A stretch of 64,000 nucleotides of DNA from Prevotella sp. (GTDB lineage: Bacteria > Bacteroidota > Bacteroidia > Bacteroidales > Bacteroidaceae), in NCBI GenBank assembly GCA_024697645.1, contig JAILFH010000114.1, forward strand, positions 1 to 64,000, written 5' to 3'. This document shows, piece by piece, positions 14,758 through 61,894 of the stretch. The stretch's first letter is position 1, and every line of letters begins with the position of its first letter. Below the pieces are notes generated by a model. That model was not told where the DNA came from. It saw only the letters and a list, made by a program, of their open reading frames with translations, and searched no databases. The position numbers and the translations under genes are program-made.

Positions 14758-17103
14758 TTACTTCGTCTTCACCTCACTCCACTTCGGTGGCTCTACACCA
14801 AGAAGGTGGCGGACAAAGAAGTCGTAGCGCTTGTGTTCACCATAACGCTCTCCCATAGTATGATGAACGCCTGGTAGAACGACAAGTTCAAAATCTTTAC
14901 CGGCACGAATCAGGGCATCGGCTACCTGCATAGTGCTGGCAGGGTCAACATTGTCGTCGAGTTCGCCAACAACAAGCATCAGTGGACGCTCAAGTTTAGA
15001 GGCGTGATAGACATTACTGCATTCTACATAGGAGGAATCGATGGGATAACTCATCCACTGCTCATTCCACCAGATTTTGTCCATACGATTGTCGTGACAG
15101 CCACAGGAAGAATAGGCTGCTTTGTAGAAATCACCATGAAGGAGTACAGCAGTCGTCGACTCCTGTCCACCTGCCGAAGCACCGAAAATGCCAACATTGT
15201 CTGCATCCATATAAGGATATTTCTCGGCTGCAGCACGAATCCATGCTTTACGGTCGGGGAATCCAGCATCCTTGAGGTTCTTATAGCAAACCTCCTCAAA
15301 CTCCTTACCACGCCAGGAAGTGCCCATTCCATCAAGTTGAACAACAATGAAACCAAGTTCAGCCAATGGGGTCATATTCCAGTTAAAGACACTGAACGAC
15401 TTCGGAGTGTAAGCATCACCAGGGCCTGCATAGATATACTCAATAACAGGATATTTCTTCGATGGGTCGAAATTGGTGGGACGTTGAATAACTCCCCACA
15501 TAGGCGTTTTACCATCACGGCCAGGAGCCACGAAAACCTCAGGAGCGCGCCAACCCTCAGCAAGCAATGGCTGGATATCAGCAGATTCGAGAAGGAGCCC
15601 ATCCCCAGCCTGTCCATTTGATGTACTTCCTAATGCATATAGTTTAGTTACAGGGGCCTTATCAGGCGAAGAATAGGTGTCAACAAGATACTGATGATCG
15701 CGGGAGAAAGATGCCCGGTGGTTTCCTTCCTCTGGAGTAAGTTCCTGGAAATCAGTACCATCGAAACGAACCGTGAAGTAATGAATATTATAGGGATCTT
15801 CATTTGCATGATAGCCTGAAGCCGTGAAATAGATGACTTGAGACTCCTCATCTACGTGAAGAACCTCACGCACGCACCAAGAACCACTTGTAATCTGCTT
15901 GCAGGAAAGAGGGAAACGAAGCGAAGCAGGAGAAGCCTCCTGAATGTTCAAAGTTTTTGACTTTGAGGCCTTACGCTTCTTTGAAACTGCTGCAGGCGAA
16001 TAGATATACAAATGATTCCAATTGTCACGCTCGCTAATCCAAAGCAAACGTCCATCCTTCAGCCAACGACGCCAGAGGCGGTTGTAGTTGACAAACTTCT
16101 CAGAACGTTCCTCAATAAGAGGAGTCAGACTGCCCGTCTCTGCATCCATTGCCAGAAGTTGATAGAGATGATGACCACGCTGATTATATTCCATCGTAAC
16201 ATAGCGGCTATCAGGTGTCCACTGGAACCATTCAAGATCATACTGATTAGGGAGAGCGCCCTCGCCAGCATCTTTTCTTTCGGCAAGAATCGTCTTATGA
16301 CCCGATGCATTTGAAGAATCCACTGTTAGAGTAAATATATAAGGAGTGCGCTGTGGGAGTTCATCACCAGGTTTCGCATATTCCTGTTTGTGAAGAATGG
16401 GTTGCAACTGGTCCTGAGGTGAAGATTCCACGTAATAGGCGTATCGCTTCTCTACAGGCTGACGTTTGCATACGAAAAGTTTGCGAGAATCAGGTGACCA
16501 ATAGATACGATTGCTATAATAGTTGCCAATAGTTCCATCCTGAGAAATCTGGCGTTTTTCGCTATAAGGACGTCCAACCTCATGAACGACGATATTGTAG
16601 CCTTCAACCCATGCTTCCAACTTGCCATCAGGCGAAGTAGCCAATCGCTGTTCCTGTTCCTCATCTACCTCCATCCAATGGCGCTGTTGCTGACGGAACG
16701 GAGTTGTACCTCTCCCACCCCATCCATTGGGGCGATTTCCAAAGCGACGCTGGCGCTCAGGCTGAGGAGAACGAAAAGCAGACAGAGCCTCATTCAGTTC
16801 CTTCTCTGAAGCAAATTCCTGCTTAGAGTTTTGGTCTAAATCACGAAGGATAAACCTCTGACCCTCAGGAGTTTGTATGGAATAGTGAAACACATGGGTG
16901 GAATCTACCCACTGAATATTCTGTGCCCAATGATAAACATTCTTCGTAGAAAATCTAGACTGGAGTGAATAAGCACGATTGTAGTCTTCGACTGTGCCCT
17001 GGGCTAAACATGTTGAAGTTCCAAGGACTGGAAGCATCATAATGGCTGCTGACACCATCAAGAACTTCTTAACTGGTTTGTAAGTAAATCTGGTTTTGTT
17101 CAT
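14758..17103 (-). CDS. S9-family serine peptidase, dipeptidyl peptidase IV type
   Basis: Catalytic GIFGASAGGQES, GELDDNVDPASTMQVADAL, LPGVHHTMGERYGEHKRYDFFVRHLLG; N-terminal WD-like propeller and signal peptide. Confidence 0.88.
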   Translation of the reverse strand: MNKTRFTYKPVKKFLMVSAAIMMLPVLGTSTCLAQGTVEDYNRAYSLQSRFSTKNVYHWAQNIQWVDSTHVFHYSIQTPEGQRFILRDLDQNSKQEFASEKELNEALSAFRSPQPERQRRFGNRPNGWGGRGTTPFRQQQRHWMEVDEEQEQRLATSPDGKLEAWVEGYNIVVHEVGRPYSEKRQISQDGTIGNYYSNRIYWSPDSRKLFVCKRQPVEKRYAYYVESSPQDQLQPILHKQEYAKPGDELPQRTPYIFTLTVDSSNASGHKTILAERKDAGEGALPNQYDLEWFQWTPDSRYVTMEYNQRGHHLYQLLAMDAETGSLTPLIEERSEKFVNYNRLWRRWLKDGRLLWISERDNWNHLYIYSPAAVSKKRKASKSKTLNIQEASPASLRFPLSCKQITSGSWCVREVLHVDEESQVIYFTASGYHANEDPYNIHYFTVRFDGTDFQELTPEEGNHRASFSRDHQYLVDTYSSPDKAPVTKLYALGSTSNGQAGDGLLLESADIQPLLAEGWRAPEVFVAPGRDGKTPMWGVIQRPTNFDPSKKYPVIEYIYAGPGDAYTPKSFSVFNWNMTPLAELGFIVVQLDGMGTSWRGKEFEEVCYKNLKDAGFPDRKAWIRAAAEKYPYMDADNVGIFGASAGGQESTTAVLLHGDFYKAAYSSCGCHDNRMDKIWWNEQWMSYPIDSSYVECSNVYHASKLERPLMLVVGELDDNVDPASTMQVADALIRAGKDFELVVLPGVHHTMGERYGEHKRYDFFVRHLLGVEPPKWSEVKTK

Positions 17104-17114
17104 ATTGTTGATAT

Positions 17115-21125: not shown

Positions 21126-22364
21126 TTATTTCCTCAACCGGAACTGATAAGGGAAGACTGTAGGTTTAGGTGCATTCTCAAATCCATAGCCACCACGCCC
21201 ACGATGGCGATAGAGTTGTTCGTGTTCGTTAGGTGCTCCCATGACTACAAGATAGAGATGCTTGAGTTGCTTACCCTTCGGCACACGGAACTCAGAATTA
21301 TTCATCTCGCCATAGATGCTCTCACCCTCAGTAGTCACTCCGACAAATCCATAACGTACGCGGTCGCCAACAAACTCGATGCGAGTCTTTTTAGCCAAAG
21401 GCAATGGGATAGCATTAAATCCATACTCTTCAGGAAGATTCTCAGGACGAAGCCATCCATCCGCCAGTGTATCGAGTTTACAGGTGAAAGTACAAGCATA
21501 AGGACGTGTTTCCTTCTGAGCATGCTTGAAGTCGAAGTTCACGAGATGCTGATAGCCTCTGAAGGTTTCATCGCAGAATGCTTTCTGAGAAAGGCCATAG
21601 AGCCGCTTATAGGTAATCACGGGATCTTCACCTCGCTTACCTGCCCGATAAAGATCACCAATAGCCGTCTTACCACGAAGGTCGCTCCACCATTGGATGA
21701 CATAGGGCGAATGATAGATGTTATCCATCGCAAGATAAGCCTTGTGGGTTAGATTCTTGAAAGCATCGAAGTGATACTGTTCGTCTTTGACCCAATCTGG
21801 GTTCACTTGCCACAACATCCATTGTGAAGTCATTTCGTAGAAGCCTGAACCTCCCCAAGCCTCTCCCGTCTTATCGGCAGGAATCTGCAACTGGAAAGAA
21901 TGTCCAAGTTCGTGAGCAAGACAGTTGAGTTTACGGTCTTGAATACGATTGGGTGCCACCCATAGCGCACCGATAAAGTCATCGTAGGTACCGCCGTAAG
22001 CAGTGCCGTCAAGCGAGTACATAATCATGACCATCATCTTATATTGCTCAGACTTTGAACCTGGCAGCGTGAACTTCAGCGTGTCGCGAAAGAAATGGTA
22101 GAACGATTCAACTCGCTCTTCCAAGTTCTGAAGGTCGAATCGCATAGGATGCCCCTCAAGACTGGGTGGATTCTGCAGATCATCGCCAAATCCTTTCTCC
22201 CAGAAAAATATAAGATTCTCGGTCTGTACAGACCGTTGATAACACCACTTCGAAGCGGTATCATTCAGATTCATTCCCTGAAGATCCTCAGGGATGAAAA
22301 TTTTCTTCTGTGCGAAAGCCATACACGGCAGCAGACAAGACAATACAATAAGAAACTTCTTCAT
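21126..22364 (-). CDS. DUF6055-like secreted putative metallopeptidase (HELGH)
   Basis: Signal peptide MKKFLIVLSCLLPCMAFAQ; CLAHELGHSFQLQ then GFYEMTSQWMLWQ; paralogous to 45672-47864 and 55641-57626. Confidence 0.75.
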   Translation of the reverse strand: MKKFLIVLSCLLPCMAFAQKKIFIPEDLQGMNLNDTASKWCYQRSVQTENLIFFWEKGFGDDLQNPPSLEGHPMRFDLQNLEERVESFYHFFRDTLKFTLPGSKSEQYKMMVMIMYSLDGTAYGGTYDDFIGALWVAPNRIQDRKLNCLAHELGHSFQLQIPADKTGEAWGGSGFYEMTSQWMLWQVNPDWVKDEQYHFDAFKNLTHKAYLAMDNIYHSPYVIQWWSDLRGKTAIGDLYRAGKRGEDPVITYKRLYGLSQKAFCDETFRGYQHLVNFDFKHAQKETRPYACTFTCKLDTLADGWLRPENLPEEYGFNAIPLPLAKKTRIEFVGDRVRYGFVGVTTEGESIYGEMNNSEFRVPKGKQLKHLYLVVMGAPNEHEQLYRHRGRGGYGFENAPKPTVFPYQFRLRK

Positions 22365-22460: not shown

Positions 22461-24218
22461 TTAATAGCCGAGACCAATCTTATCCTGCCAGTTGAGATAC
22501 CAACTACGGGTATCATTAAGGTCGACCTGGATGAGAGAATGCATCGTTGCATCGTTCTCACCTCCACGACGAGCATAGATACGATTGGCAAGGAACGACG
22601 GATCGTTTCGACGCAATGCTACACGCATAAGGTCGTAGAAACGCTGTCCCTCGAAAGCAAACTCAAGTGCTTCCTCATTAACAATGAGATCCTCAACCTG
22701 CTCAATCTGGTAGGCAATCTGCTGGAGAGAGTCTGTGATGAGCGTATCCTCAGGCATAACATAATAGTCATTGAAACTGCTATAACCACTACCACGTGAG
22801 TGGATACCAATAGTATTCTCGTTATTGCTGTTAGCAGTTGTCTCAAGGATATAGAGCGTGTTGGGGAAGTCGAACTGACGAATCCACGTGCTATCATTAC
22901 GATAGTAAGGAATCACATCATTCTCAATCACTTCGTTGTTAACACCAGTCTTCAGAATCTGGAAAGCGAAACGCGGATAGCCTGCACGATTAAGTGCCTC
23001 AGCCATGCGCAGATAAACCATTGCCAGACGATAGACGTGAACGTTACGAGTAGAATACTTAGTGATACCTATCTCAGTCACACGATGAGTACCAACCATA
23101 CGGTTCTCATTTACTTTATAGATTGACTGGAAGCGAAGGTCGCCTGAGCGATACTCGTCCAACCCTTCAGGAGCATAAGTCACCTCACCAGAAGCGGTTA
23201 CGTGACAATACTTCTGAGCAGACGACAGTTCAATGATGCGCTGAGAAGGAACGATAGATGCCTTGTACTCATTCGACTCATAAGCATTGAACAGATTACG
23301 CAGTTCGCTATAGTTACCCTCCGAAGGAATAGAGTCACCAGGAATCATCGTGATCAGTTCAGGATAGGTAAGGTGGTTCTCTCCAATAAATGAACTCATC
23401 GACCAACCATCACGAACGTCCTGCCAATGGGTTCCGTCCATAAAGCGAACTGAACCGGTACTGATTGGAGAAGCAGTATTGGTGCCATTATGAGTGCTCA
23501 AATACTTGTAGTAGTTGAGAGCAGCCTCTTTGTAATGACCTGCCCAGAGGTTAAGGTCGCCCAGAAGCACATAGATTGGGAAGTAGAACAACTTCGAATC
23601 AGTGTTACGAATAGTTCCATAGCCCGGAGTCTCAACGTCGGCGTAAGGAGCAATGTCGTCGATGAAATAATCACAAATCTCGGCAATGCCATACTTCGGA
23701 TAATCCATCTCCGACTCAGCCTTAGACAGAATGGGATCGGTAACGAGAGGAACCTGACCATAGTTAAGGGCCAGTTGCAGATAGGTCCAAGCGCGGAATG
23801 CCTTCACGGCTGCATACTCCTTCATGAAGATGTACTCATTGCGGTTGTTGCGCAAAGCAGTATCAGCCTTAGCAATGAAGTAGTTGCAGTTGTTGATGAT
23901 GGCATAGTAATCGCGTGGTGAATTATACATATTGTCGTCACCAATGTTGAACAAGGCAACATCACGCAGGTCAGAAGACGTGTTGGAGTTAATGTCAACA
24001 AGATCACCACGCATCTCACCCAGCAAGATAGTACGGTCAGCAATCACCTGCATCTTATTCAGAATACCGGCTACAGACCACAATGTATCAGTTGCGTTGT
24101 CAAGATGACTCTTATCAGCATAGATTACCTGATCAGACTCCTGATCGAGGAAATCGCTACAGGCAGTGAAACCGCAGATGACGCAGATTGCGCTGATCAT
24201 TAAAATATATTTCTTCAT
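22461..24218 (-). CDS. SusD/RagB-family nutrient-binding outer membrane lipoprotein
   Basis: Lipobox ICGFTACSDFLDQES; VYRLAMVYLRMAEALNRAGYPRFA; ALEFAFEGQRFYDLMRVALR. Confidence 0.92.
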   Translation of the reverse strand: MKKYILMISAICVICGFTACSDFLDQESDQVIYADKSHLDNATDTLWSVAGILNKMQVIADRTILLGEMRGDLVDINSNTSSDLRDVALFNIGDDNMYNSPRDYYAIINNCNYFIAKADTALRNNRNEYIFMKEYAAVKAFRAWTYLQLALNYGQVPLVTDPILSKAESEMDYPKYGIAEICDYFIDDIAPYADVETPGYGTIRNTDSKLFYFPIYVLLGDLNLWAGHYKEAALNYYKYLSTHNGTNTASPISTGSVRFMDGTHWQDVRDGWSMSSFIGENHLTYPELITMIPGDSIPSEGNYSELRNLFNAYESNEYKASIVPSQRIIELSSAQKYCHVTASGEVTYAPEGLDEYRSGDLRFQSIYKVNENRMVGTHRVTEIGITKYSTRNVHVYRLAMVYLRMAEALNRAGYPRFAFQILKTGVNNEVIENDVIPYYRNDSTWIRQFDFPNTLYILETTANSNNENTIGIHSRGSGYSSFNDYYVMPEDTLITDSLQQIAYQIEQVEDLIVNEEALEFAFEGQRFYDLMRVALRRNDPSFLANRIYARRGGENDATMHSLIQVDLNDTRSWYLNWQDKIGLGY

Positions 24219-24260
24219 AATCATGTATTTTCTTAAATCATTAATCATTATGCAATTCCA

Positions 24261-27200
24261 TTACAGATTGATCTTCACACCAGCAACAAAACTGCGGCTG
24301 AGCGGCAGACGACCGAGGTCGATGCCCTGACCAATGACATTAGAAGTCATCGAGAACTCAGGATCAGCACCAAGATACTTAGAGAATGTAAGCAGGTTGT
24401 TAGCCTGAATCCAGAACTGGAATCCCTGCAACAGTGTTGAGTGCATGGGAAGCGTGTAAGAAAGCGTGATGGTCTTCAACTTCAGATAACTTCCATCCTC
24501 AATCCAACGATCGCTGAAGCGGCTGTTGCCCATAGGATCCTGGAAAGTAACCTTAGGAATATCAGTCACCTGACCCTCAGTCTGCCAGCGGCGTGTGAGT
24601 GCAGTGGTCTGATTCATGAAGCGGCTACCTCCCTCAAGTTGTGAGCGCATGTAGTTGTATACATCATTACCCAACGAATAGTTGAAATTGACATCAAGTT
24701 TGAAGCGCTTATAAGCAAGTGAAGTGAAGATGTTACCGTAGATATCGGGATTAGGATCACCGATAAACGTACGATCGGCCTCAGAAATCTGATTGTCGCC
24801 ATTGAGGTCGGCAAAGTGAATATCACCAGCACCAAAGTAATCGTGGTCAACGCCATTGGTATTAAGAATGTACAGCGCAGCCTGATTAGCCTCCTCGCTC
24901 GTTGCGAAGACACCCTGAGTCTTGTAACCGTAGAACATATTTGCGGGCTTACCTATCTCAGTGCGGATAGATGCACCATAGACGCTTGTCTCAAATGCAT
25001 TCTGATTGTCAGAAAGTTCCGTAATCTTGTTCACGTAGTGACCCATGCTTGCACCAAGTTCCCACTGGAAGTCCTTCAGCGAGATTACCTTGCCAACAGC
25101 CGTAACGTCGAAACCTTCGTTCTTCATGGCGCCACCATTAGTCCAGTTGCGCTCCAGACCCGAAAGGAAACCAAGCGACTGATACATCAGCAGATGGTCG
25201 GTCTTGCTGCGGAAGTAGTTGAAGCGAACATTCAGGCGATTGTTGATGAAGTTACCCTCAAAGCCTGCATTGAAGCGCTTCGTGGTCTCCCACTGCAAAT
25301 TGGTGTTACCAATGTTCTCGAAGGACAGACCCGAAACATCCTCAAGGAAGTTGTTCGAACTGAAGTAACTTCGAGCAGCATAGTAGTCGAGATCGTCGTT
25401 ACCGCTGACATCGAAGCCTGCTGTAAGACGGAAGTAGTCGATACCACGTACCTTTGCGAACCAAGACTCATTGCTCATCACCCAAGATGCCTGAACACCT
25501 GGGAAAATACCCCATGCAACACCGAATGCCTTTAGTGCGTTGTCGGCATCCTCGCCGAAGCGAGACGAAGCCTCTGCAGTGAGGTTAGCCTGCAGATAAT
25601 AGCGCTGCAGATAGTTATATTCGGCCTGAGCGTACCAAGCAATTGAGTTCCAATTATCATTGTTACCGAAGGTCTGAGCGTGTGCCAGACTTGAACTGAT
25701 TGAAGGAATCTTATCACTGCTGGTATTGTAGCCGAGTTGTGAACTAAGCGTATAACTCTCCCAGTTGATACGGGCTCCACCGAATACGTGAAGGTAGTGA
25801 GCCTCATAACGATTGTTCCAATCAAGACGCGTATCACTCATCACAGAGTTCTGCTTACCTGCCATCGAGCGAACCTCGTTATTCACATAGGAGTTCACGC
25901 TGGAAACATAGTAAGAAGGAACACCATTCAGAGGAACGTAAAGTTTCTCGTTCGTGTTAACGAGGTTGTAACTGAAGTGCTCGCTCAAAGCAAGATGCTT
26001 GTTGAACTGGAATTTCGGAGTCACCGAGAGGTTAATCATCGAGTTCTCAAAGCGGTTCTTATTCTCAGCCTCACCAAAATCGTTGACAGCCAGCGGGTTA
26101 GCCAACTGGTAGTTGTAATTAGCATAGTCAGCAAGAGCCTCGTCGAGATAACTCTCGTCAGTAACGTCTACGTAGTTGTCAGAAATAATTCCATTGGCAA
26201 ACGTATAGGGGCTAAGCATAGGACTCTTAACGTAAGCAAGGAATGCAGCCGATGTGGGAGTTCCCTCAGTATAGTTCTCGGGGGCACCGTCATTGCGGAG
26301 GTTACGAGTCTGGTTGGCAAACGAAGCATCAAAGCGAATGCTGAACTTATCTGTCAGATGAATATCGGTATTGAAACGGATATTCAGACGGCTCATCGCA
26401 TTGTCCTTCAGTGTGCTCTGATTGTTGATGTAACCCAGCGAGAGGTTATAGTCAGCCACATCGTCACCACCTTCTACGTTGATGCTGTAGTTCTGAGTGA
26501 TGGCAGTACGATAGACATAGTCCTTCCAGTCAGTATTGTTATGATACTGTGGATAGTAGTAATAGTTGGGATCTTCGTTCAGGAACTTGAAGTCCTTAAT
26601 CGTGGTGTAAGTTGTCTGCAACAGATCGGAAGCATAACTGCGATACTGATTTGCATTCATCACATCAACAAACTTCGGCTCCAGCGTCACACCACCCGAG
26701 AGGCTTGCCGTAATACGGGTTGCCATACTGTGGTTGCGACGAGTGTTCACCTGAATCACGCCATTGGCACCCTTTGCTCCATAGAGAGCCGTACCATTGC
26801 GGATTACGTTGACGCTCTCGATATCGGCAGGGCTGATATTGGCGAGAATGTCGTTGAAGAAACCATCGTGCAGGGTTGTACGATTATACTGCTGGTCGAA
26901 GATAACGCCGTCGACAACGATCAGCGGCTGAGCATTGATGTTCAGAGAGTTCAGACCATTCATGAACATCACGCTACCGATACCGGGCGTACCACTACGG
27001 GTAATCACGTGCACATCGGCACCGAGACGCTTCTGTACTTCCTCCTCAATGGAAACTGCATTGGAGAAACGGAAGTCGGAAGTCGTTTCGTCGGATGTGA
27101 CGTTCGTTCCCTGAACATATTCAGAAGTAAAGGTCGACGGATAGAGCAAAGCATCGCGCTGCTGCTCATCAGGCGAAAGACCCATCTTCGTCATGTTGCG

Positions 27201-27506
27201 ATCAGGAGCCGAGATTTCGAGTGACGTAGCAAAGAGAGGAACCTTCAGTTCGTAGGTACCATCACTATGTGAAAGCGCACTGTAGCCCTCAACCTCTGCC
27301 GCGCGAACCATAGCACCCGATACGGGGGCTTTGGTTGTAGCATTCAGTACACGACCTTTAACAACTCGTGTAGGATATTGCTTACGTGGCTTTACCACTT
27401 TCTCCCTTCTAGGGGCTGACAGTTCTTCGCTGTCGTCCTCTTGCGCCACAGCGGGTGCAGCGCACAGTATGAGGAGTGATAGGCAAAATACAATATATCT
27501 TTTCAT
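24261..27506 (-). CDS. SusC/RagA-family TonB-linked outer membrane protein
   Basis: Carboxypeptidase-like N-domain; plug PLIVVDGVIFD..NISPADIESVNVIRNGTALYGAKGANGVIQVNTRR; YLKLKTITLSYTLP; C-terminal barrel. Confidence 0.93.
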   Translation of the reverse strand: MKRYIVFCLSLLILCAAPAVAQEDDSEELSAPRREKVVKPRKQYPTRVVKGRVLNATTKAPVSGAMVRAAEVEGYSALSHSDGTYELKVPLFATSLEISAPDRNMTKMGLSPDEQQRDALLYPSTFTSEYVQGTNVTSDETTSDFRFSNAVSIEEEVQKRLGADVHVITRSGTPGIGSVMFMNGLNSLNINAQPLIVVDGVIFDQQYNRTTLHDGFFNDILANISPADIESVNVIRNGTALYGAKGANGVIQVNTRRNHSMATRITASLSGGVTLEPKFVDVMNANQYRSYASDLLQTTYTTIKDFKFLNEDPNYYYYPQYHNNTDWKDYVYRTAITQNYSINVEGGDDVADYNLSLGYINNQSTLKDNAMSRLNIRFNTDIHLTDKFSIRFDASFANQTRNLRNDGAPENYTEGTPTSAAFLAYVKSPMLSPYTFANGIISDNYVDVTDESYLDEALADYANYNYQLANPLAVNDFGEAENKNRFENSMINLSVTPKFQFNKHLALSEHFSYNLVNTNEKLYVPLNGVPSYYVSSVNSYVNNEVRSMAGKQNSVMSDTRLDWNNRYEAHYLHVFGGARINWESYTLSSQLGYNTSSDKIPSISSSLAHAQTFGNNDNWNSIAWYAQAEYNYLQRYYLQANLTAEASSRFGEDADNALKAFGVAWGIFPGVQASWVMSNESWFAKVRGIDYFRLTAGFDVSGNDDLDYYAARSYFSSNNFLEDVSGLSFENIGNTNLQWETTKRFNAGFEGNFINNRLNVRFNYFRSKTDHLLMYQSLGFLSGLERNWTNGGAMKNEGFDVTAVGKVISLKDFQWELGASMGHYVNKITELSDNQNAFETSVYGASIRTEIGKPANMFYGYKTQGVFATSEEANQAALYILNTNGVDHDYFGAGDIHFADLNGDNQISEADRTFIGDPNPDIYGNIFTSLAYKRFKLDVNFNYSLGNDVYNYMRSQLEGGSRFMNQTTALTRRWQTEGQVTDIPKVTFQDPMGNSRFSDRWIEDGSYLKLKTITLSYTLPMHSTLLQGFQFWIQANNLLTFSKYLGADPEFSMTSNVIGQGIDLGRLPLSRSFVAGVKINL

Positions 27507-31297: not shown

Positions 31298-31317
31298 AAC
31301 TTTCATCATTTACGGTT

Positions 31318-33060: not shown

Positions 33061-33071
33061 ATTCGTAACCA

Positions 33072-42003: not shown

Positions 42004-42054
42004 TTAGGCTGCAATTTTAAGTGATAAAAATTAGTTAGTCTCTTAAAAACCTTA

Positions 42055-50057: not shown

Positions 50058-50125
50058 TTCTATATTAATTATAAATGTAGTGCTATATGTAAAAGTCGTG
50101 TCGGTCGAAAAAATCAAATCTGCTG

Positions 50126-52564: not shown

Positions 52565-55024
52565 ATGAAAAAACTAATCATCCTCTCGCTGGCGGTAGCA
52601 ATGACGCTCTCCGCTTCAGCCGCAAAGAAACAGCAGCCCAGTGCTGGCTATCCGATTTCGCCTGTGCCCTTCACGGCTGTGAAAGTAACCCCTGGTACGT
52701 TCTGGGGACAACGCCTTGAAGCCTCGCGTACAGTGACCATTCCTCTGGCTTTCTCGAAATGCGAAAGCGAGGGCCGCTACAAGAACTTTGAGAACGCAGC
52801 CGCTCACCTGAAGGATCCCTCGAAGGTGTTCAAGGTAAATGGCGTCGGCTATTCGTTCGACGATACTGACCCCTACAAGACCATTGAGGGCGCAAGTTAC
52901 ATTCTGCAGACTTATCCTGACAAGAAACTGAAGGCGTATGTGGACTCTGTGCTCGACATCATCGCTTCGGCTCAGGAGCCCGACGGCTATCTCTACACTG
53001 CCCGCACGCAGAACCCCGAGAATCCTCACCACTGGGCAGGTAAGACGCGCTGGTCGAAGGAGGAAGACCTCTCTCACGAACTCTACAATCTCGGCCACAT
53101 GGTCGAAGCAGCCGTAGCCCACTGGCAGGCAACAGGTTCGACAAAGTTCCTCGACATTGCAAAGCGCTACGCCGACTGCGTCTGCCGCGAGGTTGGACCG
53201 AATCCCGGTCAGGCTTGTGTGGTTCCCGGTCATCAGATAGCAGAGATGGCACTTGCCAAACTCTATCTGGCCACTGGCGAGAAGAAATATCTCGACGAGG
53301 CTAAGTTTCTGCTCGACTATCGAGGAAAAACCACTATCGTTCACGACTATTCGCAGGCTCACAAGCCCGTTATTGAACAGGACGAGGCCGTTGGTCACGC
53401 TGTTCGTGCTGCCTATATGTATGCAGGTATGGCCGACGTTGCCGCACTGACGGGCGACCAGGACTACATTCACGCCATTGATGCCATCTGGGACAACATC
53501 GTCACGAAGAAACTCTACATCACTGGTGGTATCGGCGCTACGTCAAGTGGTGAGGCCTTCGGACCGAACTACTATCTGCCCAATATGTCGGCTTATTGCG
53601 AGACTTGTGCCGCTATCGGCAATGTCTATGTGAACTATCGTCTGTTCCTGCTTCACGGCGATTCGAAATACTACGACGTGCTCGAGCGTACGCTCTACAA
53701 CGGCCTCATCTCGGGTGTATCACTCGATGGTGGCGGCTTCTTCTACCCCAACCCACTGGAGTCGATGGGTCAGCACCAGCGTCAGGCTTGGTTCGGATGC
53801 GCCTGCTGTCCGTCGAACATCTGTCGTTTCATTCCCTCACTGCCCGGATACGTCTATGCCGTGAAGGATCGCAACGTCTACGTGAACCTCTTCCTCGCCA
53901 ACAGCACAACGCTCGACTTGGCTGGTAAGAAGGTAGCACTCTCGCAGCAGACCGAATACCCGTGGGACGGTGACATCGCCATCAAGGTGGACAAGAACGC
54001 AGCAGGAAAGTTCGCGATGAAGATTCGTATTCCCGGATGGGCAAAGGGTCAGGTGGTGCCGAGCAATCTCTATAGTTATACCGACAACGAGCGCATTCAG
54101 GCTACTTGCAGCGTGAATGGAACGGAGGTAGAGGTGAAGACCACCGAGGACGGCTATCTGACCATCGACCGCAAGTGGAAGAAGGGTGATGTGGTTCGTC
54201 TGCACTTCGACATGAAGCCCCGTACGGTGAGAGCCCTTGAGCGCGTGGAAGCCGATCGCGGAATGGTCGCCATTGAGCGTGGTCCGCTGGTGTATTGCGC
54301 AGAGGCTGTTGACAACGACTTCGACATCATGGGCGTACTCATCAATCAGGAGCCGAAGTTCGACGTGAACGCCAATCAGGACTTCAGTTTCAAGGCTGAG
54401 AGCGGTGCTTACACCGTAAAACTGACAACGCTCGCTACCGACGCGCAGACGCTCTCCTTCGATAAGCAAGGTCGTCTGACGGCTGAGAACGTCCGTCTGA
54501 AACTCATCCCCTACTACGCTTGGTGTCATCGTGGTCGCAACAATATGAAGGTTTGGCTCGCTCAGGATCTGCGTGCTACACGCCCATCGGCTCCTCCCAC
54601 GCTCGCCTCGCTCAGTAAGATTGGCTCTTCGATGCGCATTCCATCGCTCAATAGTATCTGCGACCGACTGGTGCCGAAGGATGGCAGCGACCGCTCTATC
54701 CCCTATACTCACTGGTGGCCGAAGGAAGGTTCTACTGAGTGGATTTCTTACACATTCCCAGAGGCAACGACTGTTCAATCGTCAACGGTTTACTGGTACG
54801 ATGATCAGCCTTGGCAGGGATGCAAGGTTCCCGACAGTTGGAAACTCTACTATAAGGACCAGCAGGGCGAATGGCAGTCTGTGCAGAACCCCGATCAGTA
54901 TCCTGTGATGAAGGGCGCTCCCTGCACCGTGAACTTCGACCCTGTGAAGACCACTGCCGTGAAACTCGAAGTGACAATGGCTGAGAACAAGTCGGCTGGC
55001 GTCTTCGAGTGGAGTGTGAAGTAA
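52565..55024 (+). CDS. Glycoside hydrolase family 127 (DUF1680), beta-L-arabinofuranosidase-type, with C-terminal extension
   Basis: GGIGATSSGEAFGPNYYLPNMSAYCETCAAIG; GGFFYPNPLESMGQHQRQAWFGCACCPSNICRFIPSLPGYVYA, matching the GH127 Cys/Glu zinc-thiolate centre. Confidence 0.92.
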   Translation: MKKLIILSLAVAMTLSASAAKKQQPSAGYPISPVPFTAVKVTPGTFWGQRLEASRTVTIPLAFSKCESEGRYKNFENAAAHLKDPSKVFKVNGVGYSFDDTDPYKTIEGASYILQTYPDKKLKAYVDSVLDIIASAQEPDGYLYTARTQNPENPHHWAGKTRWSKEEDLSHELYNLGHMVEAAVAHWQATGSTKFLDIAKRYADCVCREVGPNPGQACVVPGHQIAEMALAKLYLATGEKKYLDEAKFLLDYRGKTTIVHDYSQAHKPVIEQDEAVGHAVRAAYMYAGMADVAALTGDQDYIHAIDAIWDNIVTKKLYITGGIGATSSGEAFGPNYYLPNMSAYCETCAAIGNVYVNYRLFLLHGDSKYYDVLERTLYNGLISGVSLDGGGFFYPNPLESMGQHQRQAWFGCACCPSNICRFIPSLPGYVYAVKDRNVYVNLFLANSTTLDLAGKKVALSQQTEYPWDGDIAIKVDKNAAGKFAMKIRIPGWAKGQVVPSNLYSYTDNERIQATCSVNGTEVEVKTTEDGYLTIDRKWKKGDVVRLHFDMKPRTVRALERVEADRGMVAIERGPLVYCAEAVDNDFDIMGVLINQEPKFDVNANQDFSFKAESGAYTVKLTTLATDAQTLSFDKQGRLTAENVRLKLIPYYAWCHRGRNNMKVWLAQDLRATRPSAPPTLASLSKIGSSMRIPSLNSICDRLVPKDGSDRSIPYTHWWPKEGSTEWISYTFPEATTVQSSTVYWYDDQPWQGCKVPDSWKLYYKDQQGEWQSVQNPDQYPVMKGAPCTVNFDPVKTTAVKLEVTMAENKSAGVFEWSVK

Positions 55025-55640: not shown

Positions 55641-57626
55641 ATGAGACACCACATCTTGTTAATCTCGGCCCTTCTGATGCTGTCTTCCTCGTCCGCTATG
55701 GCGCAGAAGGACTCACTATGGGCTAAGAAAATCAGCGACACACGCTTCTACGAGAACCAAGTGTTCGACATCAGCGATGTTGACTCCATCGACTTCAACG
55801 CTTCCCGTATCCGTTTTAAGAAAGACGGAAAGACTACTGCACAAGCATTCTCGACTTTCGAATATTTCTCTTTCCGCAATCCTGGACAGACGCTCTATTG
55901 CCCAGCAGAATTTCGTTCTATGGACTGGAACGACGAGGCGAGCGAATGGTGCTTCCAGCGCTCGATGGAGAGTGATCACTTCATCGTGTTCTGGCAAGAA
56001 GGCTTCGGGCTCGACCCCACCAAGGCGGCACGCGGCTATGCATTCGACCCCAACCTTCTGCTCTCGCAAGCCGAAGAAATCTATAAGGTGAACAGCGAGG
56101 AACTGGGATTCTCTCGTCTAGGCAGCAGTTATACCCTTGACCACTATAAGCACATGCTCTTCGTTCGCTATCAGACCGAATGGCTCGCTACAGGCTCAGG
56201 CTATGATGATAAGATTGGGGCGTTCTGGTGTAATCCTGCTGCCGTCAACGACCGTACTACTCTCGCCCACGAACTCGGTCATACGTTCCAATATCTTGTT
56301 CGCTGCGACCTGGGCCCTGGACGCGGGTGGCGACAGGGATTCGGTCCTAATGGCGAAGGCGGCAACATGTATTGGGAGAGTTGTGCCCAATGGCAGTCGG
56401 CGCGTGTCTACACAGAAGGAATCTTCTCTGGCTGGGGCTCGTCTTACCCAGGACATAGTTATATGAATCTCCTTCACGAGGAACCGCGCTACGAGAACTA
56501 CTATCATCAGTACTACTGGTGTCAGTTACATGGTCAAGACTTCGTCGGACGACTCTGGATGGCTACCAAGGGCAAAGAGGATCCTGTGGACACCTATAAA
56601 CGCATCACTGAGCGCACGCAGGATGAGTTTTGCGACGACATGTTCGAATATGCTCGACGCTGCCCCACCTGGGATATGGACGGAATCAGAGAGTTGGGAA
56701 AGAATTATCGTGACCGCTTCAGTACCCGAATTCAAGACAACGAGGAAGGATGGATTGAGCCACAGCCAGGAAACTGTCCTGAGAACTATGGTTTCAACGT
56801 GATGCGAATGACTGTACCCAATGGAGCGACTACTGTCAGCGTTCGTTTCAGAGGCGAAGCAGGCAAGGAAGGCTATCGCGCCCTGAATACCGAACTGGCA
56901 GGTTGGCGTTATGGATTTGTGGCTCTCGGACGTGGCGACAAGCGAACCTATAGCGAGATTGGTCGCGCGAAAGAAGGTACACTCGACTTCGACGTTCCAG
57001 AAGGCACACGCAATCTCTGGTTTGTGGCTATGGGTGCTCCCACGGAGCATTTCCACCACGTGTGGGACGACAACAACGACAACGATGAGCAATGGCCCTA
57101 TGCTGTAGACTTTCAGGGTACAGACGTAAAAGGTCACGTAAAGAACCTGAAGGAACTCGTGCCGCACGACACTACGATTGTCGTGAACACATACAACACC
57201 TATGAGGCAGAGAAGGAATTAAGCGGAACCTACGAACTCGACATCACTCCTATTCGTATGGCACTCGCCTGTACGGCTACAGAACTGCAAATTACGCCTC
57301 AGACGCAAGACACGATTCGCGTCTATACGGAGGAGCCTGACGGTACACTATGCGACGTTGAGGTTACACCTTATGCGTACTATTTCTTCTACGATGCTGA
57401 GGGCAACGTCATCAAGGCAGAATCCATTGCAGATGGAGAAGAAAAAGGAAGTTATTATGCGATGTACGCGAGTTATGGAGATCACTTTCTAATCTACTAT
57501 GGCGAACTGAACGGCAAGCATCTGAACAAAGGCGATTCACACACATTCCCGATTGCTTTCCAGCGCACACTGGATGACGGAACAAAGGTTACTGCCCGCG
57601 TGCTGCTGAACGTCATTATGGAATAG
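55641..57626 (+). CDS. DUF6055-like secreted putative metallopeptidase with C-terminal DUF4859-like module
   Basis: TTLAHELGHTFQYLVR, YWESCAQWQSARVY; same architecture as 21126-22364 plus extension; signal peptide MRHHILLISALLMLSSSSAMA. Confidence 0.78.
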   Translation: MRHHILLISALLMLSSSSAMAQKDSLWAKKISDTRFYENQVFDISDVDSIDFNASRIRFKKDGKTTAQAFSTFEYFSFRNPGQTLYCPAEFRSMDWNDEASEWCFQRSMESDHFIVFWQEGFGLDPTKAARGYAFDPNLLLSQAEEIYKVNSEELGFSRLGSSYTLDHYKHMLFVRYQTEWLATGSGYDDKIGAFWCNPAAVNDRTTLAHELGHTFQYLVRCDLGPGRGWRQGFGPNGEGGNMYWESCAQWQSARVYTEGIFSGWGSSYPGHSYMNLLHEEPRYENYYHQYYWCQLHGQDFVGRLWMATKGKEDPVDTYKRITERTQDEFCDDMFEYARRCPTWDMDGIRELGKNYRDRFSTRIQDNEEGWIEPQPGNCPENYGFNVMRMTVPNGATTVSVRFRGEAGKEGYRALNTELAGWRYGFVALGRGDKRTYSEIGRAKEGTLDFDVPEGTRNLWFVAMGAPTEHFHHVWDDNNDNDEQWPYAVDFQGTDVKGHVKNLKELVPHDTTIVVNTYNTYEAEKELSGTYELDITPIRMALACTATELQITPQTQDTIRVYTEEPDGTLCDVEVTPYAYYFFYDAEGNVIKAESIADGEEKGSYYAMYASYGDHFLIYYGELNGKHLNKGDSHTFPIAFQRTLDDGTKVTARVLLNVIME

Positions 57627-58018: not shown

Positions 58019-60526
58019 TTATGGCTCGTAGCACTTCACGCGAGTACCATCGTAACCTACTGCCATAATGTAAGCGGGGTTCTCGCTTGTGTTCCAGACG
58101 ACGTTGGTGTACTGTGGCTTGTAGGCGCTCTCACCATGACCATAATTAGTGATGTGGATGAGCGTACCGTCAGCCGTATAAGTCTCAAAACCAACGACAT
58201 TCTTCCACTTGCTATGCTGGATGCGAACATTATTGCCAGAGAGCACGCAGCCTGCTCCAACAGTTCCTGCCTCAAGAGCAGCCTTATCGCGGAAGACGGG
58301 ATAGTTGTTAACGTCGATGAAATAGAACGCCTCAGGAGGCTCAGGATAATTCATTGCCTCTATCTGACTCTCGAGTGTGTTGAGCATACTCTCAGTGATT
58401 GTGAGTTGACCGACACCATAGTCGTCAATTGCGACATCAACAGTTTTGAACATGCCTACCTTCTTGAAGAATGGCAACCAGTTGGTCTTCGTAATCTTAC
58501 ACCATTGCAGCATAAAGTTCACCTGCTGCTGACCATTAGTCATACTTGCTACGCTTGCATCTGTACGTAAAGTCTCGTAGAGTTCGGGATAAGCACTCGG
58601 CTGTATTTCAGCAATACGAGTATAGATAAGCAACTGCCAGAACGGAATCAGTGTGCAGAACACATCACCATTGACATGCGGCATGAACTGACCTCCTGTA
58701 AGTACATTGTACTGAAGGTAGTTGTAGTAGCGGAAGCCGTTGGACTCGTTCTCCAAACGATGATAGCCATCAGTACGAAGTTCGTGTTCAACGTAAGCCG
58801 ACATAATGTTATTACTGACCTCAGTCAGACCAACCCATGTCAGACCCTTCGTCTGGTTGTTGTGACCCAACTCGTGGGCAGCACCCCAGAAGTCGAAGTA
58901 TTTACGGCTCGTCGGATCACGCAGCGCATTGACGGGAACGCAGAAACCATCGTTGCTGGCATGATAGAGACCAGCACTCGTGGCTACAGTGATAGCGCAC
59001 TGACGGTTGGGACACTCGTGGTTGTACTTGAATACACCCATGAGTTCACGCTCAACGCTGACAATGCTGTCGTAAGCGGCCATCAGCCATTCACCATCGT
59101 TCGGACAGTTAGCCTGATAAGACGAAACAGGGAAGACGCAATCGATGAACTCACCGTGTAGATCAAGGCAGTCGCCCTTCGCATTTGCCAACAGACGCTT
59201 CCAGTCATCATTGGTGTGACCCTTATACTTCGGACTGAAGTAACCCTGCTCTGTGGCGTTGAGGAAGTGAATCTTCACCTTCGGAGCATTCTTCCAGTCG
59301 GAAGTGTAGTAGTTGATGTAGCCATTACCCTTGTTGTTACACCTGATGACGTTAATACCATTGCTGAGCGGATAACTGCTCGAAGCGAACACTTCGGGAC
59401 CGAAGTTGCGAACAGTAAGTGAAACGGGCGATGTAGAGATGCCTTCAACAGCCAGAATAACGGTCTCTCCCTCTTCGAAGGTGATACCAGTCGGATTCTC
59501 ATGATCGCAGTAGGTGTGAGCATTCTTCAGTTCGTTGCGAAGTTCAGAGACAGGACGGAACGCACCAAACTCGCCCAAGCGGAACTCTGTGGAATAGGTT
59601 CCTGCCATCATCTGCTGAGCAGCATCGCGAATCTCCTCGACGGGAATCTCGGCAATCTGTTCTGCGGTGAGACCAGACTTGAGGGTCGTGCAAAGATTGT
59701 CAGCGAAGTACTGCTGGAAGAGGTCGGTCATATAGGTGTTGCGCTCGTAGAACGTCATCTCAGCACAACTGGCAAATGCGCGTCCTGCGTCGCTCGTACT
59801 GCTGAGTACAGTGAAACGAACTGACACGATATTGTCGATGCCATTTGAACCGAAGGAGATCTGCGAAGCATTGTTGCCACCGCCGAAATCCATTGTGGTG
59901 AGTTCCACAAAGTCGCCACCTTGTAACTTATACTCAATTTTAACTTCCTTAAAGTTGCCATTGGTGCCCGACTGACGCGGAGTGTATACAGCGTAGTCGA
60001 TATGCGACGCCTTCTCGAAGTTATAGGTGAGCGTAATGGGATAAGTAGTTCCGGAATAATTAGAATGATAGATGGTTGAATAGTCGCCATCAAACGATTT
60101 CTCAATACCTTCACCACCCTGATAAGACGAAGCCTCACCACTTGCGATGGGAACCTGAATGTCTGTAGCATCGAAACCTTCCTGAATGACGGTGAGCAGG
60201 CGCTCAACAGTGCCGTTGGCAGAAGTGAACTTCACGGTTCCTTCACGCTCGCCAAGATTGAAGTTGGGTGAACTGAAGATGGCCATATTGCCATTTGCCA
60301 TCTTACGCAGAATGATCCACGAATCATCGCTCGTGGCAGTATAGTCGCAGTTACCTGCTACGGCTACAGTCGTGAAACCGCTGCAGTCGATATAGGCTGT
60401 GGTCTTACCAAGTATGAGTTGGTCGCTCTTCAGATTCGCATTGTCAAGACGGAGCGACTGAGCCTGAACATTCACAGCAAGCAGCATTGCCACTATGCTG
60501 AGGACATAATATCTTATTGTTTTCAT
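58019..60526 (-). CDS. M60-like (enhancin-type) metallopeptidase with N-terminal BACON-like and F5/8 type C/CBM32-like domains
   Basis: WGAAHELGHNNQTKGLTWVGLTEVSNNIMSAYVEHEL; BACON-like NCDYTATSDDSWIILRK...GTVKFTSANGTVERLLTVIQ; CBM32-like GEGIEKSFDGDYSTIYHSNYSGTTYPITLTYNFEKASHIDYAVYTPRQSGTNGNFKEVKIEYK. Confidence 0.85.
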   Translation of the reverse strand: MKTIRYYVLSIVAMLLAVNVQAQSLRLDNANLKSDQLILGKTTAYIDCSGFTTVAVAGNCDYTATSDDSWIILRKMANGNMAIFSSPNFNLGEREGTVKFTSANGTVERLLTVIQEGFDATDIQVPIASGEASSYQGGEGIEKSFDGDYSTIYHSNYSGTTYPITLTYNFEKASHIDYAVYTPRQSGTNGNFKEVKIEYKLQGGDFVELTTMDFGGGNNASQISFGSNGIDNIVSVRFTVLSSTSDAGRAFASCAEMTFYERNTYMTDLFQQYFADNLCTTLKSGLTAEQIAEIPVEEIRDAAQQMMAGTYSTEFRLGEFGAFRPVSELRNELKNAHTYCDHENPTGITFEEGETVILAVEGISTSPVSLTVRNFGPEVFASSSYPLSNGINVIRCNNKGNGYINYYTSDWKNAPKVKIHFLNATEQGYFSPKYKGHTNDDWKRLLANAKGDCLDLHGEFIDCVFPVSSYQANCPNDGEWLMAAYDSIVSVERELMGVFKYNHECPNRQCAITVATSAGLYHASNDGFCVPVNALRDPTSRKYFDFWGAAHELGHNNQTKGLTWVGLTEVSNNIMSAYVEHELRTDGYHRLENESNGFRYYNYLQYNVLTGGQFMPHVNGDVFCTLIPFWQLLIYTRIAEIQPSAYPELYETLRTDASVASMTNGQQQVNFMLQWCKITKTNWLPFFKKVGMFKTVDVAIDDYGVGQLTITESMLNTLESQIEAMNYPEPPEAFYFIDVNNYPVFRDKAALEAGTVGAGCVLSGNNVRIQHSKWKNVVGFETYTADGTLIHITNYGHGESAYKPQYTNVVWNTSENPAYIMAVGYDGTRVKCYEP

Positions 60527-60550
60527 ATCCTTATTCATTTTTGCTTGTAA

Positions 60551-61894
60551 TTACTTGATGACCACTTTCTTTCCGTTGACAATATAGATACCCTTCTGAG
60601 GCTGACGGTTGCCGAGAGAACGTCCCTGAATATCGTAGATAGTTGCATTCTCGAGACTCGTGCTGCTTGTCTCAACTTGCTCAATTCCCGTAGGATCAAA
60701 CACATCGATAGGCTCCGTAGAGAGTTCCACGTCGGGATAGTGAGGAGAAGTTGCGGTGATGACAACGCCAGTGTGAGGCTTCAGGAATGTGATGCGATAG
60801 CCCGAATAGGTGTAGTCGGTGCCCGAGACGAGTTCTTCGCCTGCACCATTCTTGAATGTGAGCGTGAGCGACAACGGGGCACTCCAGGTGTTGCGGCCGA
60901 GAATGTTCGTAAGTTGCTCGGAACGCTCGTTGATGTTCATATCGTCGAACAAATGATAAGGATTCTGCGGCGAAACGGCTCCTTCAACTGAATAGGTCTG
61001 CGAACCCGACTTATAGATGGTTGGGAACGAGTTGAAGAAGAGGTAGTTTTCCGAGAGGTCTACAAACTTCAGCGAATTCTTGCTGCTCGTGGGAATCGTC
61101 AGTTCCGCAAGTTTGTTACCAGGGGCACAGAGGCACACCAATGCAACATCTTCTGATAACGTGAGAGAGGTCAGACGATTGTTGCCAATCCAGAGGTTCT
61201 CGAGATTGGAGAGCGCAGCAGCATTAAAGGTAGTGATGCTGTTATCGAAACCAAGCACATCGGTAAGTTCCTCACAACGCGAGAGGGTTGTTGAAGAGAC
61301 CTTGTTTCCCTGGAAGAAGAGTTTCTCAAGTCCTGTCTGATTGCCCACATAGTTGAGTGCGGTCAGACGATTATTGGCACAGATGATTGAAGTGAGGCTC
61401 GTACCGCCACGAAGTCCTGTTGCCGCGAGTCGGTTGTCGGCTTCGTTGAGGTCAACAAGTTGAGTGCTGACCAGATTGAGGGCCGTCAGTTTGTTGCCCT
61501 GACAGTCGAGAGAGACAAGTTCCGTGCAAGATGAGAGGTTGAGTGCAGTCAGATTGTTGTCTGCACAGAAAAGGCGGCGAAGCGTTGTGGCAATACCTGT
61601 CACATTGAGTTCGCTCAGTTCATTCTCTGCTACATATAGCGAGGTGATGTCCTTGTCGGAACTAAGGGTTAATGACGCGCTCTTCACTGTAAACTCTTGC
61701 GGCACACCAGTGGAATTCACTTCTTCCACTGTGCCATCACCCCATTTCAGAGTCAGGGGGATTCCCGCATTCACGGCAATAGAGATGGTAGAGCCAACAT
61801 CTCTGCCTGTCTTCATAGTCACACTGCCTGCCGACGCGCTCAAGGCTGAGGTCAGCAGCAATGCCACTAATGCTAACTTTCTTAAATGTTTCAT
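60551..61894 (-). CDS. Secreted leucine-rich-repeat (internalin-like) protein with C-terminal tail GIYIVNGKKVVIK
   Basis: Repeats LFCADNNLTALNLSSCTELVSLDCQGNKLTALNL...LENLWIGNNRLTSLTLSED; tail IYDIQGRSLGNRQPQKGIYIVNGKKVVIK. Confidence 0.88.
   Translation of the reverse strand: MKHLRKLALVALLLTSALSASAGSVTMKTGRDVGSTISIAVNAGIPLTLKWGDGTVEEVNSTGVPQEFTVKSASLTLSSDKDITSLYVAENELSELNVTGIATTLRRLFCADNNLTALNLSSCTELVSLDCQGNKLTALNLVSTQLVDLNEADNRLAATGLRGGTSLTSIICANNRLTALNYVGNQTGLEKLFFQGNKVSSTTLSRCEELTDVLGFDNSITTFNAAALSNLENLWIGNNRLTSLTLSEDVALVCLCAPGNKLAELTIPTSSKNSLKFVDLSENYLFFNSFPTIYKSGSQTYSVEGAVSPQNPYHLFDDMNINERSEQLTNILGRNTWSAPLSLTLTFKNGAGEELVSGTDYTYSGYRITFLKPHTGVVITATSPHYPDVELSTEPIDVFDPTGIEQVETSSTSLENATIYDIQGRSLGNRQPQKGIYIVNGKKVVIK

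What the first reader, a model, noticed from the sequence alone, without database searches (positions are those of the whole stretch)
14758..61894. Candidate glycoprotein-degrading PUL (extensin-type hydroxyproline-rich glycoprotein as one target)
Seen: HTCS, two SusC/D pairs and three FAS1 lipoproteins lie with DPP-IV, several HExxH secreted proteins, an M60-like peptidase, a GH97 with a retaining-type KVDF motif and a GH127 with the CxCC/ExC centre. Established: GH127 includes beta-L-arabinofuranosidases acting on Hyp-linked arabinooligosaccharides; retaining GH97 members are alpha-galactosidases; extensins carry Hyp-beta-L-arabinofuranosides and Ser-alpha-galactose; M60 peptidases cleave O-glycoproteins; DPP-IV acts after Pro/Ala. 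Inference: the set fits stripping sugars from, and cutting, a Hyp/Pro-rich O-glycoprotein better than a simple polysaccharide. Mucin-like or other arabinose/galactose-bearing glycoproteins are alternatives.
Basis: partly seen in the sequence, partly recalled or inferred. Interest (0 to 1): 0.75.

Follow-up and report, generated by a model that had tools for sequence, protein, structure and literature searches.

The report
Gut-bacterial locus for digesting plant extensin
A rumen-type Prevotella carries a gene cluster that probably cuts up extensin, a tough sugar-coated plant cell-wall protein, and many plant-eating gut bacteria carry the same enzyme set built around relatives of a plant-pathogen enzyme recently shown to cut extensin.

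Summary
In detail: HTCS, two SusC/D pairs, three FAS1 lipoproteins, an S9/DPP-IV-type peptidase, three DUF6055 zincins, a further HExxH protein, an M60 peptidase, a retaining GH97 and a GH127 are all at the stated place. DUF6055 proteins are distant members of the Svx/AvrXca family (46 of 48 locus homologues match its model, far below the curated cut-off). Svx of Pectobacterium was shown in 2026 to cleave extensin but not mucin. A scan keyed on DUF6055 alone returned 80 loci, nearly all Bacteroidales. GH97 and GH127 lie beside it about ten times more often than expected. In 8 named isolates DUF6055 sits with GH127 (8/8), a second GH127 (7/8), retaining GH97 (7/8), GH43 (5/8), the same S9 peptidase clade (5/8) and an orthologous HTCS (5/8), although most have unrelated SusC/D modules. 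That set matches extensin chemistry: Ser-alpha-Gal, alpha/beta-Araf on Hyp, Pro-rich peptide. The window's lineage combines it with an unusual double-SusCD/three-FAS1 uptake module. No substrate was tested. The DUF6055 proteins lack a detectable acyltransferase-like domain, which Svx needs for extensin cleavage. Arabinogalactan-protein and mucin remain weaker rivals.

The parts
14758..17103 (-). S9 family peptidase with DPPIV_N domain (locus-specific clade)
   Evidence: Pfam PF00326/PF00930; 44-68% identical to S9 genes of other DUF6055 loci but 23-26% to the other DPPIV-type genes of its own genome
17115..21029 (-). Hybrid two-component system regulator (Reg_prop, Y_Y_Y, HisKA, HATPase, receiver, AraC HTH)
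   Evidence: Pfam; 40-57% identical orthologues in most HTCS-bearing DUF6055 loci
21126..22364 (-). DUF6055a, Svx-related gluzincin peptidase, HELGH-X21-E
   Evidence: PF19527 383 bits; NF040510 Svx 43 bits over residues 78-265; AlphaFold model pLDDT 93 with M1/M60 gluzincin fold; H151, E152, H155, E177 invariant in 48 homologues
22461..24248 (-). SusD-like lipoprotein 2
   Evidence: Pfam
24261..27506 (-). SusC-like TonB-dependent transporter 2
   Evidence: TIGR04056 552.7 bits over cut-off
27527..29221 (-). FAS1 lipoprotein a
   Evidence: PF02469 and lipobox
29273..31309 (-). FAS1 lipoprotein b
   Evidence: PF02469 and lipobox; 70-84% orthologues in 19 congeners
31318..33072 (-). SusD-like lipoprotein 1
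   Evidence: Pfam
33072..36389 (-). SusC-like TonB-dependent transporter 1
   Evidence: Pfam Plug, CarboxypepD_reg
36393..39014 (-). FAS1 lipoprotein c, first gene of the SusCD/FAS1 operon
   Evidence: PF02469 just above cut-off, lipobox; conserved position
39457..42003 (-). Conserved secreted HEGIH protein with T9SS-like tail, putative new metallopeptidase family
   Evidence: No Pfam, NCBIfam or PDB match; orthologues beside the same module in 8 of 13 congeners, HEGIH invariant
42341..44797 (+). Four DUF4859 modules with T9SS-like tail, putative binding protein
   Evidence: PF16151 x4; conserved in congeners
45672..47864 (-). DUF6055b-DUF4859 peptidase with T9SS-like tail
   Evidence: PF19527 345 bits, PF16151; NF040510 Svx and weak TIGR04183 match
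48159..50117 (-). CotH-type kinase with C-terminal DUF4859-like region
   Evidence: PF08757 153 bits; runs with DUF6055 in 20 of 75 loci; conserved catalytic-like motifs
50324..52333 (+). GH97 retaining alpha-galactosidase
   Evidence: NF053844 over curated cut-off; closest PDB 3A24/5E1Q alpha-galactosidase; nucleophile Asp of KVDF kept
52565..55024 (+). GH127 beta-L-arabinofuranosidase-like enzyme, type 1
   Evidence: PF07944/PF20736/PF20737; closest PDB 6EX6, 982 bits, vs HypBA1 354 bits; CxCC and ExC centre
55641..57626 (+). DUF6055c, Svx-related peptidase
   Evidence: PF19527 471 bits; NF040510 Svx E 5.8e-18
58019..60538 (-). CBM32-M60 O-glycopeptidase-like protein
   Evidence: PF13402, F5/8C; closest PDB BcM60K O-glycopeptidase and a B. 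theta CBM32
60551..61900 (-). Secreted LRR protein with T9SS-like tail (accessory)
   Evidence: PF12799; kept next to M60 in one congener, G199
62896..64000 (-). 3' part of a GH43 gene (complete 62896 to about 64992 on the contig); possible alpha-arabinofuranosidase, membership of the locus uncertain
   Evidence: PF04616 + PF17851 on the full gene; closest PDB GH43 alpha-arabinofuranosidases/xylosidases

Best explanation
This is a polysaccharide-utilization-type locus for extensin-type plant hydroxyproline-rich glycoprotein. Proposed working: HTCS senses a released fragment. Secreted or T9SS-exported Svx-related DUF6055 peptidases, the M60 protein and the 848-aa zincin cut the glycoprotein outside the cell. 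DUF4859 and FAS1 proteins hold it at the surface. The two SusC/D pairs import glycopeptides. In the periplasm GH97 removes alpha-galactose from Ser, GH127 (with GH43) removes arabinofuranose from Hyp, and the S9 peptidase removes dipeptides from the bared Pro/Hyp-rich peptide. Shown here: gene content, family memberships, active-site residues, the conserved association. Inferred: substrate, enzyme localisation, order of steps.
For: DUF6055 homology to Svx: 46 of 48 homologues match NF040510 (best 2.9e-23), including the active-site region of the window copy. Svx degrades carrot extensin but not mucin or concanavalin A (PMC13164431). DUF6055a is the enzyme most constantly linked to the FAS1/SusCD module: 12 of 13 congeneric loci. 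In 60 congeners all 5 genomes with the close FAS1b (>=70%) have DUF6055, against 12 of the other 55 (hypergeometric p about 0.001, my arithmetic). A DUF6055-only scan gave 80 loci: GH97 nearby in 23 (2.5 expected), GH127 in 18 (1.7 expected), both in 9 (0.06 expected). In 8 named isolates: GH127 type 1 8/8, type 2 7/8, retaining GH97 7/8, GH43 5/8, S9 peptidase 5/8. Aminopeptidase P genes follow DUF6055 in two loci read individually (L127, L124). Retaining GH97 nucleophile motif kept in all 21 close GH97s. Known Hyp-Ara4 breakdown uses GH43, GH121 and GH127 (PMC6085000). Bearers are rumen and gut Bacteroidales and Segatella paludivivens.
Against: No substrate, expression or growth data. The Svx match is far below the equivalog cut-off (29-65 vs 625 bits). 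Svx needs its acyltransferase-like domain to cut extensin and no such domain was detected in the window's DUF6055 proteins. The GH127 is nearer 6EX6 than HypBA1. No GH121 was seen. Only one GH127 is in the window and its GH43 lies at the edge. The loci share ancestry, so counts are not independent. M60+CBM32 is also typical of mucin degraders.
Confidence: 0.7

Rival explanations
1. The locus targets arabinogalactan-protein or another arabinose/galactose plant glycan rather than extensin; GH127 removes terminal beta-Araf from AGP side chains and the peptidases act on the AGP protein core.
For: The GH127 is closest to 6EX6; a Bacteroides GH127 (BT3674) works with exo-galactanases on arabinogalactan (PMC10850190).
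Against: The window has no galactanase or beta-galactosidase family, and GH16, GH30, GH35 or GH53 were not among the 25 families shown for 55 neighbouring proteins (63 families in all, so not exhaustive). Retaining alpha-galactosidase and Svx-type peptidase are not AGP tools. Docking argued against beta-glycosylated AGPs as Svx substrates (PMC9266454, PMC10815107).
Confidence: 0.13
2. A host or mucin-like O-glycoprotein is the target; M60 and DUF6055 are mucinase-like glycopeptidases.
For: M60 closest to BcM60K O-glycopeptidase and CBM32 to a B. theta CBM32; DUF6055a fold resembles M60-type ZmpA and AM0627.
Against: M60 is present in only one of 13 related loci examined. No sialidase, hexosaminidase or alpha-GalNAcase family in the window. 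Svx does not cut mucin. GH127 acts on plant sugars. Bearers include Segatella paludivivens, which to my knowledge comes from plant residue in paddy soil (for the record).
Confidence: 0.07
3. Two neighbouring systems: the FAS1/double-SusCD module imports a separate plant polysaccharide, and the GH97/GH127/DUF6055c/M60 block is an independent cluster.
For: A sister FAS1 module (50-58% identical) lacks DUF6055 and carries a GH51-type arabinofuranosidase, a Glyco_hydro_cc protein and ricin-type lectins. GH97/GH127 are absent from many congeneric copies.
Against: DUF6055a is inside the FAS1/SusCD operon and is conserved there in most of 13 loci. Hallella seregens and G199/G203/G296 keep GH127 and/or GH97 beside the same module.
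Confidence: 0.1

Closest known systems
Svx/AvrXca peptidases (Pectobacterium, Dickeya, Xanthomonas); fungal M106/DUF6055
   Same: Gluzincin motif HExxH...E and detectable profile homology across the peptidase domain; secreted; Svx cleaves extensin (PMC13164431)
   Different: Far below the equivalog cut-off; no acyltransferase-like domain detected; sits in a nutrient-uptake locus with SusC/D, not a virulence context; three paralogues, one fused to DUF4859
Hyp-arabinoside degradation clusters hypBA1/hypBA2/hypAA of Bifidobacterium longum and Xanthomonas euvesicatoria (PMC6085000, PMC7263609)
   Same: GH127 beta-L-arabinofuranosidase and, in related loci, GH43 for arabinose on hydroxyproline-rich glycoproteins
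   Different: No GH121 seen; two GH127 types instead in related loci; adds alpha-galactosidase, peptidases and SusC/D uptake, so the protein part is also attacked
Bacteroides PULs for plant glycoproteins (AGP PULs, plant N-glycan PUL PMC9522356) and the B. theta mucin O-glycoprotein locus (PMC11992087)
   Same: HTCS or SusC/D-based uptake with glycosidases for one glycoprotein class
   Different: Enzyme set matches Ser-alpha-Gal/Hyp-Araf and has Svx-type peptidases; double SusC/D with three FAS1 lipoproteins

Membership tests
Polysaccharide utilization locus (SusC/D type) | Adjacent SusC and SusD genes | tested here: met
   Two pairs; TIGR04056 over cut-off for SusC2, SusD Pfam models for both
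Polysaccharide utilization locus (SusC/D type) | Linked carbohydrate sensor and CAZymes | tested here: met
   HTCS, GH97, GH127
Polysaccharide utilization locus (SusC/D type) | Induction by and growth on the target | not testable with these tools
   No expression or growth data
Svx family peptidase | Gluzincin motif HExxH-X(8,28)-E | tested here: met
   HELGH-X21-E in DUF6055a, invariant in 48 homologues
Svx family peptidase | NCBIfam NF040510 equivalog cut-off (625 bits) | tested here: not met
   43, 29 and 65 bits for DUF6055a, b, c: relatives, not equivalogs
Svx family peptidase | Acyltransferase-like C-terminal domain needed for extensin cleavage | tested here: inconclusive
   No reported stretch goes beyond NF040510 position 449 of 601; not searched by structure for b and c
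GH97 retaining alpha-galactosidase | Curated equivalog cut-off NF053844 | tested here: met
   805.8 vs 800 bits
GH97 retaining alpha-galactosidase | Asp nucleophile in KVDF | tested here: met
   KVDFLDR at 418, aligned with KVDF of 3A24; 5E1Q has KVGF there
GH127 beta-L-arabinofuranosidase | Catalytic domain with CxCC and ExC zinc/nucleophile centre | tested here: met
   PF07944 398 bits, CACC and ETC
GH127 beta-L-arabinofuranosidase | Activity on Hyp-linked beta-Araf rather than AGP or aceric acid | tested here: inconclusive
   Closest to 6EX6; below the aceric acid hydrolase cut-off, 472 vs 950
Dipeptidyl peptidase IV | S9 + DPPIV_N domains | tested here: met
Dipeptidyl peptidase IV | Xaa-Pro dipeptidyl specificity | not testable with these tools
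   No dipeptidyl-peptidase equivalog cut-off reached
M60 O-glycopeptidase | M60 domain with HExxH and homology to solved O-glycopeptidases | tested here: met
   PF13402 over cut-off; BcM60K 227 bits

The most novel reading that the evidence does not exclude
Gut and rumen Bacteroidales possess a widespread, so far undescribed class of extensin-utilization loci. Its core is an Svx-related peptidase, a retaining GH97, one or two GH127 enzymes, and an orthologous sensor. The core is combined interchangeably with unrelated import modules, in the window's lineage a double SusC/D with three FAS1 lipoproteins that imports glycopeptides.
Probability: 0.6. Interest if true: 0.8.

Novelty: new variant of a known kind. 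Interest (0 to 1): 0.7.

Why it matters
Extensins are a cross-linked, protease-resistant part of plant cell walls, and how herbivore and human gut bacteria use them is open. In the open-access papers searched (no preprints or subscription journals) I saw no extensin PUL in the lists returned. If right, the finding gives a large uncharacterised family (DUF6055) a likely role in gut bacteria, links a plant-pathogen virulence peptidase family to gut nutrition, and supplies cultured isolates (Parabacteroides goldsteinii, Bacteroides cellulosilyticus, B. ihuae, Xylanibacter ruminicola) in which it can be tested directly.

Tried and rejected
Homology of the 848-aa zincin to DUF6055: profile comparison matched only regions C-terminal to the HExxH, probability 59%, not accepted. 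PDB sequence searches with DUF6055 and the 848-aa protein found nothing credible. FAS1b structure prediction failed (mean pLDDT 42, nine sequences), so no fold search was run. An apparent truncated 'GH43_C2 only' gene at the window end is simply cut by the window border; the gene is whole on the contig. Other DUF6055 and M60 genes of the same genome (contigs C109, C39, C65) are not beside SusC/D or GH97/GH127 homologues of this locus. Promoter and terminator scan of 38900-42500 gave no clear excess over shuffles. Aceric-acid hydrolase identity for the GH127 rejected, score half the cut-off. That 6EX6 is BT3674 is from memory and could not be confirmed.
Full report
Observation. The minus-strand block runs from an S9/DPPIV_N peptidase (14758) through HTCS, DUF6055a, SusD2, SusC2, FAS1a, FAS1b, SusD1, SusC1 and FAS1c (39014) with gaps of at most 96 bases; an HEGIH protein follows 442 bases upstream. 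Beyond it lie a 4xDUF4859 protein, DUF6055b-DUF4859, a CotH kinase, GH97, GH127, DUF6055c, CBM32-M60 and an LRR protein. A GH43 gene cut by the window border is complete on the contig. The three FAS1 proteins begin with lipoprotein signals. Five proteins of the window, four of them in this region, end in T9SS-like tails (e.g. KGVYIVNGKKVIVK); only DUF6055b gave even a weak TIGR04183 match among those scanned, so T9SS export is an inference.

Peptidases. Three of the five HExxH proteins in the locus are DUF6055 (PF19527, 345-471 bits). NCBIfam's Svx/AvrXca model matches all three and 46 of 48 locus homologues, best E 2.9e-23. All scores seen for the window proteins are far below the equivalog cut-off, so these are relatives and not Svx itself. 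The predicted structure of DUF6055a is confident (mean pLDDT 93). Its best PDB matches are gluzincin peptidases: M1 aminopeptidases, then the glycopeptidases ZmpA and AM0627 (E 2e-5 to 4e-3, low TM-scores, so fold class only). The published work is important here: Svx of Pectobacterium atrosepticum is a gluzincin (PMC9266454) that degrades carrot extensin and not porcine mucin or concanavalin A, and needs its acyltransferase-like domain for extensin (PMC13164431). I found no trace of that domain in the window proteins. Extensin recognition would have to come from other parts, for example DUF4859, FAS1 or SusD proteins. This is the main weakness of the reading.

Glycosidases. GH97 passes the curated cut-off for retaining alpha-galactosidase and keeps the nucleophile. 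GH127 has the family's CxCC/ExC centre; its closest solved relative is 6EX6 (982 bits), with HypBA1 much further away (354 bits). It fails the aceric acid hydrolase cut-off. Hyp-Ara4 breakdown is known to use GH43, GH121 and GH127 in turn (PMC6085000).

Comparative evidence. (a) FAS1b orthologues of 70-84% identity occur in 19 other congeners. In 13 of these loci examined, the order FAS1c-SusC1-SusD1-FAS1b-FAS1a-SusC2-SusD2 recurs, with DUF6055a nearby in 12 of 13, directly after SusD2 in most. HTCS, S9 peptidase, the 848-aa zincin and 4xDUF4859 are frequent, while GH97, GH127, DUF6055b, CotH and M60 occur only in a subset (my simple ORF picker appears to have called SusC2 on the wrong strand in G296 and G041 and the zincin in G041, so those counts are minima). 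(b) A genome scan keyed only on DUF6055 returned 80 loci, mostly rumen or ruminant-gut Prevotella by record title, plus Xylanibacter ruminicola, Bacteroides cellulosilyticus, B. ihuae, B. reticulotermitis, Parabacteroides goldsteinii, Hallella seregens and Segatella paludivivens. GH97 lies within the fetched flanks in 23 loci against 2.5 expected from genome-wide density, GH127 in 18 against 1.7, both in 9 against 0.06. The loci share ancestry, so these are not independent trials. (c) For 8 named isolates I read the full neighbourhood. Three (P. goldsteinii, B. ihuae, B. mediterraneensis) were picked because the enzymes were already visible; two (X. ruminicola, B. reticulotermitis) had shown neither GH97 nor GH127 in the first 10-kb flanks and turned out to have them just beyond. 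A typical order (B. cellulosilyticus) is HTCS, DUF6055, SusD, SusC, GH127 type 2, then on the other strand GH97, GH43, GH127 type 1, S9 peptidase. (d) The S9 peptidases of these loci are 44-68% identical to the window's, whereas the window's is only 23-26% identical to other DPPIV-type genes of its own genome; HTCS proteins of the loci are mostly 40-57% identical. (e) Aminopeptidase P sits beside DUF6055 in L127 and L124. GH97 keeps KVDF/KIDF in all 21 close homologues.

Import modules differ. Most DUF6055 loci use an ordinary SusC/D pair only about 21-39% identical to the window's, often with a DUF4859 lipoprotein. The window's lineage and H. seregens use the double SusC/D with three FAS1 lipoproteins. 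A sister FAS1 module at 50-58% identity lacks DUF6055 and carries, in one genome scanned, a GH51-type arabinofuranosidase and a Glyco_hydro_cc protein, with ricin-type lectin domains there and in another. So the FAS1 module by itself is not an extensin marker. The DUF6055/HTCS/GH set is.

Mechanism proposed. Outside the cell, DUF6055b (T9SS-like tail), the other zincins and M60 cut the glycoprotein, with DUF4859 and FAS1 proteins as binding parts. SusC/D pairs import glycopeptides. In the periplasm GH97 and GH127 (with GH43 where present) remove sugars, and the S9 peptidase trims the Pro-rich peptide. HTCS couples this to expression. In several Bacteroides relatives DUF6055a carries a lipoprotein signal, which would put it on the surface; in the window it has a plain signal peptide. 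These localisations are inference from N-termini.

Verdict. Nothing biochemical has been shown for these proteins.

Noticed in passing
window 48159-50117; alignment of 14 homologues: A CotH-type kinase runs with DUF6055 in 20 of 75 loci and keeps WDFD and RGRGNS motifs; what a secreted kinase does in a glycoprotein-digestion locus is unexplained.
   Followed up: partly
window 39457-42003: 848-aa secreted HEGIH protein, strongly conserved beside the FAS1 module, with no Pfam, NCBIfam or PDB match: a candidate new metallopeptidase family.
   Followed up: partly
L178-L189, L191 (congeners G189, G284, G089, G085, G212, G210, G208): A sister double-SusCD/three-FAS1 module without DUF6055, carrying a GH51-type arabinofuranosidase and lectin proteins in some genomes; probably another plant-polymer uptake system.
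   Followed up: partly
window 8259-10857: Cobalamin riboswitch (10522-10857, minus strand) ahead of a TonB-dependent receptor gene (8259-10472), a likely cobalamin uptake unit unrelated to the finding.
   Followed up: no
window 11228-14533: Two DASS-family (sodium:sulfate/dicarboxylate type) transporters next to the S9 peptidase, also adjacent in congeners G203 and G199.
   Followed up: no
L157: A contig labelled Roseburia sp. MAG carries a Bacteroidales-like DUF6055-GH97 pair, suggesting mis-binning or transfer.
   Followed up: no
L124, L145, L127: Aminopeptidase P lies directly after DUF6055 in L127 and L124 (L145 has an ORF of the same length there), another Pro-specific exopeptidase.
   Followed up: partly
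window 1411-5505: 1364-aa Big_2/DUF5013 protein with a T9SS-like tail at the other end of the window; similar proteins occur near some FAS1 modules.
   Followed up: no
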